A stretch of DNA of 64,000 nt, from the NCBI RefSeq assembly GCF_000741215.1, contig NZ_JGYX01000007.1:124001-188000 (forward strand). The letters run 5' to 3'. Shown piece by piece: positions 27,440 to 30,840 of this stretch. Source of the stretch: Bifidobacterium pullorum subsp. gallinarum. GTDB taxonomy: Bacteria; Actinomycetota; Actinomycetes; Actinomycetales; Bifidobacteriaceae. The position numbers and the translations under genes were made by a program. The notes beneath the pieces are model-generated. The model was not told the origin of the DNA. It did no database searches and saw only the letters and a program-made list of their open reading frames with translations. The stretch's first letter is position 1. Each line of letters opens with the position of its first letter.

Positions 27440-27532
27440 ATAAAAGCAAAAGAACCCCGGCCGACGTGCGGCCGAGGTTCCTTGTTGCTCCGGTACCCCC
27501 GTGGGATTCGAACCCACAACCCACGACTTAAA
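27440..27532 (-). repeat. Left attachment repeat (displaced tRNA-Lys 3' half)
   Basis: 93 bp nearly identical to 30714-30807 (two substitutions and one base fewer in a C run). It contains the 3' half of tRNA-Lys from the anticodon loop onward plus the tRNA terminator hairpin. No 5' half is present, so it is the displaced end left by integration of an element into the tRNA gene. Confidence 0.9.
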
Positions 27533-27809: not shown

Positions 27810-28738
27810 ATGGAATTCTCCGACCGCAGACAACCACCCCGTGAATGGACGCCATGGCTCGACGACTGGGTGGGCGCGATGCGCGCGCAGGGCAACTCAG
27901 CTGCGACCATCGAGAATTGGTGATACATCGTAGGGCATCTTGCGCTCAGGGCGAGGAAAAGTCCTGCGGACATCACGGGCGATGACATCATCTCTTGGCT
28001 GAACCGGGGTGTGACCGCCAACTCCAGACGTTCCGACGTGAACGCGTGCACCGCGTTCTTCGGATGGGTGTGCAAGGCGGGACGGAGAACCGACAATCCC
28101 ATGGATCTCGTGCCGACCGTCCGCCGCGACAAGCAAAGCAGCCACCCGCCCCGGCCGAGGCCGTCGAGAAGGCCAAGCATTGCACGGACAAAAGGGTTCC
28201 GCTGATCATCATGCTCATGGACGAGGCTGGGCTGCGCCGGACGGAGCTTGCGCGGGCGCACACCCGCGACGTCATCGACGACCTGACCGGCAAGAGCATC
28301 GTCGTCCACGGAAAAGGCGGCAAAGACCGCGTCATCCCATTGAGCGACCAGCTCGGATGGATCGTGTCCTCGCTGCCGGAGGGTTACTTCTTCCCAAGCG
28401 GGCATGAGGGACACGTGCACCCCGACACCATCTACCGAATCGTGAAGAACGCGACTGGCTGGCCGCCGCATGCGTTCCGCCGCAAGTTCGCCACCGACCT
28501 GTGGCGGGCGACCGGGGACACCATGAAGGTCAAGGAGATGCCCGGGCATGAATCGTTGCAGACCACGCAGAACTACATCTTCACCACCATGGACGACCTG
28601 CGCGACGCGGTCGATGAGCTGCGCGCATACCGAAGGACAAACACGCAGGGATTCCGCCCCGAGAAGATACTCGAGGCGTACAACGTCCCTCCCGCCATCG
28701 CGAAGCTCCTGCTCGACGGCCTCCGCAACCAGGAATGA
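27810..28738 (+). pseudogene. Tyrosine recombinase/integrase, twice broken
   Basis: From ATG 27810 the frame reads a SAM-like N-terminal domain (M-E-F-S-D-R-R-Q-P-P-R-E-W-T-P-W-L) until TGA at 27921-27923, continues in the same frame to about 28135, and resumes in another frame to 28738. The catalytic domain is whole: R in G-L-R-R-T-E-L-A, K in H-G-K-G-G-K-D-R, H-x-x-R in H-A-F-R-R-K-F, G-H in M-P-G-H-E-S, and Y in T-Q-N-Y-I. GGGGAGC precedes the ATG. It is the integrase of the tRNA-Lys island, now inactive unless the stop is read through and the frameshift corrected. Confidence 0.85.
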
Positions 28739-28746
28739 TCCACGGC

Positions 28747-28802
28747 GCTCTTCTGGTCCACCGGACCAGAAGAGCGAGGTCTCGCGGTCTCCCCGCGAGA
28801 CC
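28747..28802. other. Two adjacent perfect hairpins
   Basis: GCTCTTCTGGTCC / GGACCAGAAGAGC (13-bp arms, 28747-28759 and 28763-28775) is followed two bases later by GGTCTCGCGG / CCGCGAGACC (10-bp arms, 28778-28787 and 28793-28802). They start eight bases after the integrase stop; no T run follows, so they are not standard terminators. From 28803 to 29078 I see no gene, and the DNA becomes markedly AT-rich toward the next promoter. Confidence 0.75.
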
Positions 28803-29078
28803 CGTTCGACCGACTCGCCGTCACGGTTCCGGAGTGCGTCCCCATATGAAACACGGTGGCGTCGTCAGTGCGGCGGGATTGTGCGCCACCCGGTACGGGT
28901 GAAATGCTTCGGACTTTTTGTGAGAACGGCATTCGCTGGCTTTCGGCGCGGGGGCCGTCCAACGCCGCATGGTTCGGCGGCTATATGGACTGACAGGCTC
29001 TTGCATGACCTTACAGCGCGATATTGCATAGTTATATCAATTACCCGCTACACCATATTAGGTTTTGTTTGGCTTTGG

Positions 29079-29107
29079 TTGTATGGCATTGGACATGTGG
29101 CTATCAT
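29079..29107 (+). promoter_or_regulatory. Predicted promoter of the island cargo genes
   Basis: TTGTAT (29079-29084), 17-bp spacer and TATCAT (29102-29107) in an AT-rich stretch, 40 nt before the start of the winged-helix gene. Confidence 0.5.
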
Positions 29108-29147
29108 TGGGAACAATGAAACGTTGTCGGCGAAAGTGAGGTTCCGG

Positions 29148-29921
29148 ATGCCGGAGGAGCAAATCGACTGGAGGGAGACAATTGATTGTCTGCTCGATCG
29201 TTCGAAAAGGCCGTTCGTTCCGATCGATAAGACGTTCGTCCAGATGCCTAGGGGGAGTGCGAATCGTGAGGGGCCTCTGGCGACTTTCGTGAGAAACAGG
29301 GACCTTCGAGGGTTGAAAGCCTACCTGCTGATCGTCGCGTCCGCCAGCAGTGCGGACGAGAACGGCGAGTGGCACACGACACTCCCTCTGCAGGCCTGGG
29401 CCAGGGCGTTCGGATGCTTCAAGTACACGAGCGGACAGTTGTCGGCGAAGGCCGCCGCAGGGAAAATATTCGCCAGGCTCGAGAAGCGTGGACTGATCAA
29501 GAGAACGCACGATGGCGGGAAGCGCGACGTCAGGGTGCAGCTGCTCGCGCAAGACGGGTCGGGCGGGGACTACCAGCGTCCGAAGACGGGATTCCTCCGC
29601 CTGTCCCACGAGTTCTGGAAATCGAAGCTCGACGAACAGATCAGCCTGCCTGCGCTGGCGATGCTTCTCGTCATCCTTGGCGAGCGGCAGCCCTGCGAAC
29701 TGCCCTCCGAACGAATGCCCGAATGGTACGGCTGGTCCGCGGATACCGCGGAACGAGGGTTCCGCGAACTGGCGGCCTTGGGAATCATCGATAAGCAATC
29801 CCGCCCCAAGAAGACGCCCCTCAGCCCGACCGGGTTCACCACGGTGAACGAGTATTCCGTTCTTCCTCCGTATGACAGAAGCTCGCTGGAACGGGCCCTT
29901 CGCAAGCGGAAAAGGGGATAA
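29148..29921 (+). CDS. Two-domain winged-helix protein, island cargo
   Basis: A 257-residue protein not assigned to a named family. Residues about 45-140 look like one winged helix (L-K-A-Y-L-L-I-V-A-S-A..G-Q-L-S-A-K-A-A-A-G-K-I-F-A-R-L-E-K-R-G-L-I-K-R) and 150-235 like a second (Y-G-W-S-A-D-T-A-E-R-G-F-R-E-L-A-A-L-G-I-I-D-K), followed by a basic tail. The ATG at 29148 has GAGG six bases upstream; a GTG at 29136 would add four residues. It ends two bases before the DUF3800-like gene, so the two form an operon. It could be a regulator of the element, a replication initiator, or the DNA-binding half of a two-gene system. Confidence 0.65.
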   Translation: MPEEQIDWRETIDCLLDRSKRPFVPIDKTFVQMPRGSANREGPLATFVRNRDLRGLKAYLLIVASASSADENGEWHTTLPLQAWARAFGCFKYTSGQLSAKAAAGKIFARLEKRGLIKRTHDGGKRDVRVQLLAQDGSGGDYQRPKTGFLRLSHEFWKSKLDEQISLPALAMLLVILGERQPCELPSERMPEWYGWSADTAERGFRELAALGIIDKQSRPKKTPLSPTGFTTVNEYSVLPPYDRSSLERALRKRKRG

Positions 29922-29923
29922 GC

Positions 29924-30499
29924 ATGAGTGAGTTAATCGCCTGGGGCGATGAAAGCGTGCAACGGCAGGGCGGCATCGCCCCCACGTACTATGTGGGGGT
30001 CTGCATCTGCGGACTTGAGGAGGACGAGGTACGCCGAAGGCTCCTCGCCCCGATCCGGAAGAAGATCCCGAAGCTGCACTGGCGAGACATGACGCGCACC
30101 GAGAAGCGATGCTCCATACCGACGATCGAGAGCCTGTCGTTGCCCCATATCGTGGCAGCGGCCGCACCCCTGGACAACATCAAGCTCGACAGGGCCCGCC
30201 ACAAATGCTTGGAACGACTGCTTCCCGAACTGGAACAGCAATACGGCGTGACGCGTCTCGTACTGGAGTCACGGGAAGCGAGCCAGGACGAACGGGACCT
30301 TGCCTGTGTTCGCGGACTGAGAAGCAGGGGTTTCATCCGCCGACTGCGTGTGGATTTCATGCCCGGCGAATCAGATGCTCGGCTGTGGATTCCCGATCAG
30401 GTGCTTGGAGCCATCGGAGACGCCAAACGCGGCGGCGAAGGCTATTCAGGATTGATCGCGTCAGTGCATATGCTCGATGTAGATCTCAGCGATCAATGA
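29924..30499 (+). CDS. DUF3800-like protein, island cargo
   Basis: A 191-residue protein beginning S-E-L-I-A-W-G-D-E-S, matching the Y-x-D-E-S/T opening of DUF3800 proteins, which have an RNase H-like fold. Also consistent are K-L-H-W-R-D after about 45 residues and the late D-A-R-L-W-I-P-D-Q-V-L-G-A-I-G-D-A segment, equivalent to the family's conserved Asp helix. D8/E9 and the late Asp would be the metal-binding acids of a nuclease; activity is inferred, not shown. AAAAGGGG precedes the ATG and the gene is coupled to the winged-helix gene. It is absent from the core pathways around it. Confidence 0.6.
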   Translation: MSELIAWGDESVQRQGGIAPTYYVGVCICGLEEDEVRRRLLAPIRKKIPKLHWRDMTRTEKRCSIPTIESLSLPHIVAAAAPLDNIKLDRARHKCLERLLPELEQQYGVTRLVLESREASQDERDLACVRGLRSRGFIRRLRVDFMPGESDARLWIPDQVLGAIGDAKRGGEGYSGLIASVHMLDVDLSDQ

Positions 30500-30713
30500 G
30501 CCGGACAAGGCTCTGCCTTGATACGCATGAGGGCAACGTGACAAAACGCGAGTCAACGTAAAGGATTGCAGCATTACGCAAGATGACCTATCATGGTGAT
30601 AAGCCATCCTCCGAGGAGGAAACGGAAGCGGGAGCCGGACACCCTGTGTATCATGGGGGCCGGCTCCTGCGTTTGTGGCGGGCGGGACATATCCGGTCTT
30701 GGGGTTATAGGCC

Positions 30714-30807
30714 ATAAAAGCAAGAGAACCCCGGCCGACGTGCGGCCGAGGTTCCTCGTTGCTCCGGTACCCCCCGTGGGATTCGAACCCACAACCCACG
30801 ACTTAAA
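30714..30807 (-). repeat. Right attachment repeat (within the intact tRNA-Lys locus)
   Basis: 94-bp partner of the repeat at 27440-27532, overlapping the 3' half of the functional tRNA-Lys gene and its terminator. The island is the DNA between the two copies, about 3.2 kb. The tRNA remains whole because the element supplies an identical 3' half. Confidence 0.9.
30726..30754 (-). terminator. tRNA-Lys terminator
   Basis: AACCCCGGCCG / CGGCCGAGGTT stem with a 5-nt loop on the minus strand, followed by CTCTTGCTTTT, 14 nt past the tRNA 3' end. Confidence 0.75.
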
Positions 30808-30840
30808 AGGACGCTGCTCTAACCGTTGAGCTAGAGGGGC
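30768..30840 (-). tRNA. tRNA-Lys (UUU)
   Basis: A 73-nt cloverleaf. The acceptor pairs GCCCCTC with GGGGGGT (G-U closing), the D arm is GCTC..GAGC, the anticodon loop is CTTTTAA (anticodon TTT), and the T arm is GTGGG-TTCGAAT-CCCAC. CCA is not encoded. The anticodon stem has one U-U mismatch. It is the integration target of the adjacent island. Confidence 0.93.

What the first reader, a model, noticed from the sequence alone, without database searches (positions are those of the whole stretch)
29079..30499. Winged-helix plus DUF3800-like pair: candidate undescribed two-gene system
These are the only intact genes of the island, tightly coupled (two-base gap), with their own promoter in AT-rich DNA. 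One looks like a DNA-binding protein, the other like a small RNase H-fold metal enzyme with D-E near the start. Position and pairing fit a defence, toxin-antitoxin or element-maintenance module.
Basis: inference. Interest (0 to 1): 0.7.

Follow-up and report, generated by a model that had tools for sequence, protein, structure and literature searches.

The report
RNase-H-fold protein with partner RNA
The second gene of the pair encodes an RNase H-like enzyme that, across many actinobacteria and their plasmids, nearly always sits beside a small folded RNA gene not found in the RNA library searched; the first gene looks like an old plasmid replication gene.

Summary
The two ORFs are real and coupled, but the constant pair is a different one. 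P2 (29924-30499) has a confidently predicted RNase H2-like fold of the DUF3800 superfamily, too divergent for the Pfam model. It lies directly 3' of nearly every P2 relative tested: 30 of 31 genus loci, 31 of 32 further genome loci, 8 of 8 plasmid loci opened, and 27 of 29 loci held back from model building. Eighteen of 23 base pairs covary; no Rfam family matches. DUF3800 proteins with partner RNAs are a known kind (Rfam DUF3800-I, -IX); this is a new variant. In the genus only a 73-aa P2 fragment lacks the RNA, while the RNA often persists, folded, where P2 is gone. I favour a nuclease restrained by its RNA (toxin-antitoxin-like); other RNA-protein mechanisms remain open and nothing was tested at the bench.

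The parts
27496..27532 (.). left end repeat of the island (37 bp, copy of the tRNA-Lys 3' part)
   Evidence: exact direct repeat with 30771-30807
27810..28738 (+). broken tyrosine integrase (relic)
   Evidence: PF00589 E 4.2e-18 on ORF 27995-28738, PHROGs integrase E 1e-27; stop at 27921 and frame change near 28140 read
29148..29921 (+). P1, double winged-helix protein, probably a plasmid-type replication initiator
   Evidence: start from homology; RepE54 Z 9.4, rmsd 4.7, 184 aligned on a model of pLDDT 65.2; 49 plasmid records
29924..30499 (+). P2, DUF3800-like protein with RNase H2-like fold; D9, E10, E115, D158 invariant in 27 of 27
30566..30594 (+). probable promoter of the RNA, TTGCAG-17-TATCAT
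   Evidence: read; a TANNNT box at this distance in 54 of 60 relatives; not reported by the stricter promoter scan
30598..30675 (+). 77-nt two-hairpin RNA gene, partner of P2
   Evidence: R1 85.5 bits; covariation in relatives; fold -43.7 kcal/mol, z -4.75
30771..30807 (.). right end repeat of the island, inside tRNA-Lys 30766-30840 (-)

Best explanation
Shown by comparison: P2 and the 77-nt RNA form one compact protein-plus-RNA module of the DUF3800 kind, carried here by the relic of an element that entered tRNA-Lys and also brought a plasmid-type initiator-like protein (P1). Inferred: the RNA is made from its own promoter, folds into two hairpins and binds P2, a metal-dependent nuclease (D9, E10, E115, D158), keeping it inactive. 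When the RNA is lost or diluted, as after loss of the carrier, free P2 would cut cellular nucleic acid, so the module would stabilise its carrier or act as abortive defence, like a toxin with an RNA antitoxin.
For: RNA 3' of P2 in 30 of 31 genus loci, 68 of 70 sources counting weak in-place hits and 27 of 29 held-back loci. Pair covariation in 18 of 23 pairs, 0 of 500 shuffles. Own -10 box in 54 of 60. In the genus the only P2 locus without RNA is a 73-aa fragment, whereas 33 of 59 RNA places of 60 bits or more have no P2 within 800 bp; those examined keep 95.8% of pairs and 20 of 27 a -10 box. RNase H2-like fold with invariant acidic residues. Module found on 43 plasmid records by P2.
Against: No toxicity, binding or expression data. 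A DUF3800 gene, of another branch, is listed among essential genes in Legionella (PMC7811196), which would rather fit a protective protein. RNA-only loci are partly orthologous, so events are fewer than the counts; P2 is about seven times longer than the RNA and so the larger target for loss; 7 of 27 RNA-only copies lack a -10 box. L215 has an intact-length P2 and no RNA found. The RNA is single, not the repeat array of type III antitoxins.
Confidence: 0.42

Rival explanations
1. Active ribonucleoprotein: P2 needs the RNA as scaffold, or as guide, and the complex cuts foreign nucleic acid.
For: Constant pairing in either orientation; RNase H fold; DUF3800 nucleases occur in some CRISPR loci (PMC12669027; PMC10910872).
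Against: No guide-like variable stretch seen in the RNA; in 42 of 44 convergent loci its 3' boundary lies within -4 to +25 bp of the P2 stop. RNA kept without P2.
Confidence: 0.25
2. P2 processes or destroys the RNA, and the RNA is the active partner (regulatory or harmful).
For: RNA persists more widely than P2: 46 against 23 of 112 genus genomes. Essential DUF3800 gene in Legionella (PMC7811196).
Against: A harmful RNA should not persist, folded and mostly with a -10 box, in genomes without P2.
Confidence: 0.13
3. P1 and P2 act together as a two-gene replication or maintenance module and the RNA is incidental.
For: 2-nt gap here, 4-nt overlap in L173 and L175; recurrence in distant taxa.
Against: 27 of 31 genus P2 loci lack P1; 4 of 5 opened P1 plasmid loci lack a P2 relative.
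Confidence: 0.08
4. The conserved element is only a two-way transcription terminator of P2.
For: Strong hairpin just after the P2 stop.
Against: Second covarying hairpin, -10 box, persistence without P2, and the scan finds no terminator at this place.
Confidence: 0.04

Closest known systems
DUF3800 (PF12686) proteins with Rfam DUF3800-I (RF02969) and DUF3800-IX (RF02968) RNAs
   Same: RNase H-like fold with DE[ST] near the start and [AP]D near the end; profile match 94.1%, E 1.3e-7; structured RNA gene next to the protein gene, as in 3 of 20 canonical loci of the genus that gave Rfam hits
   Different: P2 gives no PF12686 match at E up to 1; 9 of 27 relatives match weakly, best 0.0045; the RNA matches no Rfam family and differs in architecture from the two printed
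RNase HII/HIII
   Same: fold: Z 11.6, rmsd 2.8, 153 residues aligned
   Different: 11% identity in that alignment; neighbouring RNA; activity untested
Type III toxin-antitoxin (ToxIN)
   Same: in the favoured reading, a nuclease held by a folded RNA
   Different: RNase H2-like fold; single RNA with its own promoter, 3' of the protein gene and on either strand
RepE54 / pi plasmid initiators (for P1)
   Same: two winged-helix domains: Z 9.4 to RepE54, 7.9 to pi; found on plasmids
   Different: no curated family match, no iterons in 28730-29160, RepE54 not in the 50 Foldseek rows shown

Membership tests
DUF3800 (PF12686) | match above the Pfam gathering score | tested here: not met
   no match of P2 at E up to 1; 9 of 27 relatives weak, best 0.0045
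DUF3800 (PF12686) | relationship by profile and fold to DUF3800 proteins | tested here: met
   hhalign 94.1%, E 1.3e-7, 164 columns against 13 canonical proteins; best viral model is a DUF3800 protein, E 9.4e-8
DUF3800 (PF12686) | RNase H-like fold with conserved acidic residues | tested here: met
   the assignment of E115 and D158 to the metal site is my reading of the secondary structure, no distances were measured
Rfam DUF3800 RNA families | covariance model match | tested here: not met
   window at E up to 5 and 10, 20 loci at gathering score, 9 loci at E up to 0.5
Type III toxin-antitoxin | antitoxin RNA made of tandem repeats | tested here: not met
   no tandem repeat in 29900-30770
Type III toxin-antitoxin | toxicity of the protein and rescue by the RNA | not testable with these tools
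   needs expression tests
RNA-guided nuclease (TnpB/omega-RNA-like) | variable guide segment in the RNA | tested here: inconclusive
   none seen by eye; RNA end abuts the P2 stop in 42 of 44 convergent loci
RepE54/Rep_3-like initiator (P1) | two winged-helix domains in the initiator arrangement | tested here: inconclusive
   Z 9.4 to RepE54 but model pLDDT 65.2, and Foldseek's top row is an RNA polymerase III subunit, E 6.5e-4
RepE54/Rep_3-like initiator (P1) | curated family match and iterons beside the gene | tested here: not met
   no Pfam match above cut-off for window P1; PHROGs initiation families weak, best 8.5e-5 (DnaD-like) and 1.3e-4 among 4 members; no direct repeats in 28730-29160

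The most novel reading that the evidence does not exclude
A new class of RNA-antitoxin module: an RNase H2-fold nuclease restrained by a single 77-nt two-hairpin RNA encoded directly 3' of it on either strand, spread over actinobacterial chromosomes and plasmids, with solitary RNAs serving as anti-addiction antidotes. It would supply a mechanism for the DUF3800 protein-RNA pairs at large.
Probability: 0.35. Interest if true: 0.82.

Novelty: new variant of a known kind. Interest (0 to 1): 0.6.

Why it matters
DUF3800 proteins with neighbouring structured RNAs are on record (Rfam; cited as a prior finding in PMC10910872), and the passages I read give no tested function. This locus is a small, sharply bounded example: one 190-aa protein, one 77-nt RNA, fixed geometry, strong covariation, plasmid carriage and many natural RNA-only loci. 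The asymmetry between RNA-only and P2-only loci makes the toxin-antitoxin idea directly testable in a harmless genus.

Tried and rejected
P1+P2 as the general functional pair: rejected (4 of 31 genus P2 loci have P1).

The RNA as partner of canonical DUF3800 proteins: L092, L101, L102 and L107 have the RNA beside a canonical DUF3800 gene (in L102 the gene is in two frames), but none of the 30 loci L118-L147 has it at E up to 0.1; L135 has a partial hit at E 0.11 and L143 one at 0.88. L022, a P2 fragment plus RNA, shares a neighbouring TetR-like gene with L102 and L107 (my reading), so I read these RNAs as leftovers of lost P2 copies; not proven.

Phage link: no P2 relative in phage records or among viral-contig candidates, no P1 in phage records. 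PDB by sequence: three matches at E 0.32-0.7, not useful. PADLOC: one hit, homing endonuclease, E 0.032. Terminator-only reading: see rivals. L079 and L197 first seemed to lack the RNA; unfiltered scans gave 15.4 bits (about 200 bp downstream of the P2 match end) and 16.7 bits (in place); L215 gave only 8.0 bits inside the P2 match.

Limits: the PF12686 genome search (28 of 112) missed members found with a protein query (36 of 112). The genus RNA scan used stricter filters, and P2 copies too divergent for may make some RNA places look orphaned. Of 33 RNA places without P2 (60 bits or more), 30 were opened; G060:C1:218981, G005:C52:9823 and G084:C1:2278219 were not. Of 43 plasmid records I opened 8. 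The GGAAG joint is invariant in the 25 sequences typed, but L036, L064 (second copy), L065 and L069 have AGAAG.

Full report
What is there. The finding sits in a 3.3-kb island at tRNA-Lys, bounded by an exact 37-bp repeat. Between the repeats are a broken tyrosine integrase, P1, P2 and an RNA gene. P1 and P2 are intact and two bases apart. The better P1 start is ATG 29148.

P2. No Pfam, NCBIfam or PHROGs family matches P2 convincingly, and PADLOC gives one weak hit. Relatives occur in 23 of 112 genus genomes, 43 plasmid records, 45 loci of the genome collection and 57 of 394 genomes drawn across the class. The AF2 model is confident (pLDDT 94.1, pTM 0.90). Foldseek and VIA-align place it with RNase HII/HIII (E 2.6e-5; Z 11.6, rmsd 2.8, 153 aligned); the best viral model is a DUF3800 protein (E 9.4e-8). 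Profile comparison with 13 canonical DUF3800 proteins of the genus gives 94.1%, E 1.3e-7, 164 columns; the P1 profile as a control gives 0.1%. D9, E10, E115 and D158 are invariant in 27 of 27 sequences; their place in an RNase H metal site is my reading.

The RNA. A conserved stretch follows the P2 stop codon. Covariance model R1 (12 sequences) found it beside P2 in nearly all of 70 sources. Counting weak in-place hits, 68 of 70 carry it; L029 (a P2 fragment) and L079 do not. It is always on the 3' side of P2. In 23 loci plus the window it is on the same strand: 25-92 bp after the stop in 21 of 23 (L022 and L023, with broken P2, differ) and 98 bp in the window. In 44 it is convergent, within -4 to +25 bp of the stop in 42 (L036 and L073 differ). 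On 60 aligned copies 94.8% of cells form standard pairs (84.3% in shuffles, at most 50% when slid), and 18 of 23 pairs change on both sides; 0 of 500 shuffles reach any of the five measures. The alignment was fitted to this structure, which favours it. A TANNNT box lies 4-14 nt upstream of the conserved GCC in 54 of 60 (shuffled mean 11.9, maximum 19). The window copy folds at -43.7 kcal/mol, z -4.75. Rfam gives no match: window at E up to 5 and 10 (one chance-level microRNA match of 15 bits overlaps it), 20 loci at gathering score, 9 loci at E up to 0.5.

Held-back test. Model R2 was applied to the 29 loci returned for other genomes of the class, none used for building. It finds the RNA in 27 of 29, always convergent, 0-26 bp from the stop in 24 of 27 (L209, L211 and L219 differ). 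L197 gives a weak in-place hit without filters, L215 none. One genome holds three tandem P2 genes with four RNAs (L221).

RNA without P2. In the genus 46 of 112 genomes have the RNA (84 places) against 23 with P2. Of 31 P2 loci 30 have the RNA within 800 bp; the exception is a fragment with a 73-aa open frame. Of 59 RNA places of at least 60 bits, 33 have no P2 within 800 bp; they lie in 25 genomes, 17 of which have no P2 hit. Thirty of the 33 were opened, in 29 fetched regions of which two repeat others. Searched with 27 P2 proteins and one canonical DUF3800 protein, four regions hold a canonical DUF3800 gene, one a 30-residue piece of one, one a P2 gene elsewhere in it, and 23 nothing. RNAs of 25 of these regions form 95.8% of pairs (28 distinct rows, one of them P2-adjacent), and 20 of 27 rows keep a -10 box. 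Some places are orthologous, so events are fewer than counts. The asymmetry is expected if P2 without RNA is harmful, or if P2 is useless without it; it fits a harmful RNA poorly.

P1. It occurs in 4 of 112 genus genomes, each time beside P2, in L073 and L074 and on the Curtobacterium plasmid locus L172, where R2 finds a 21.1-bit RNA in place. It overlaps P2 by 4 nt in L173 and L175. It is on 49 plasmid records at E up to 0.1. Its model (pLDDT 65.2) matches RepE54 with Z 9.4, although Foldseek's own best row is an RNA polymerase III subunit. I read it as the initiator of the integrated element, so its operon with P2 is probably a matter of carriage.

Known context. Rfam 15 lists DUF3800-I and -IX (PMC11701678, passage seen); 3 of 20 canonical DUF3800 loci of the genus carry one of them. 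PMC10910872 (passages seen) reports an RNase H fold with a catalytic rearrangement and a prior ncRNA association. PMC12669027 (passage seen) places DUF3800 nucleases in some VI-F and V-A2 CRISPR loci. PMC7811196 (passage seen) names a DUF3800 gene among essential accessory genes of Legionella. The paper that, as I recall, first described a series of DUF3800 RNA motifs (Weinberg et al. 2017) is not held (by DOI). Listings for DUF3800, DUF3800 motif, DUF3800 with toxin-antitoxin and related terms and Bifidobacterium structured RNAs show no description of this RNA in the titles and abstract starts listed; apart from the four papers named, none was opened.

Verdict. The pair is real but misread. 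The constant module is P2 plus an overlooked RNA, a new variant of the DUF3800 protein-RNA kind. That P2 is a nuclease held by this RNA is inference, put at 0.42.

Noticed in passing
window 28746-28806: Two adjacent perfect hairpins after the integrase relic, with a sub-threshold match to the 6C RNA family (27.6 bits, cut-off 47, E 1.1).
   Followed up: no
L127 1360-1480, L131 1361-1480, L122 2202-2275: Rfam DUF3800-I and DUF3800-IX RNAs beside canonical DUF3800 genes of the genus.
   Followed up: partly
L221 1548-3789: Three tandem P2 genes with four RNAs in one genome of the class.
   Followed up: partly
L092, L101, L102, L107: The RNA lies downstream of a canonical DUF3800 gene in four related loci, perhaps a leftover of a lost P2.
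   Followed up: partly
G000:C2 159536-160213 and 433018-433683: The window's own genome holds two canonical DUF3800 genes elsewhere.
   Followed up: no
L073 and L074: P1-P2-RNA near tRNA-Ala and tRNA-Ile genes in a Phycicoccus MAG and in a short contig labelled Acidobacteria, possibly mis-binned.
   Followed up: no
L187, L188, L190: Pairs of RNA copies about 0.7-1 kb apart in one locus, at most one of them beside P2.
   Followed up: no
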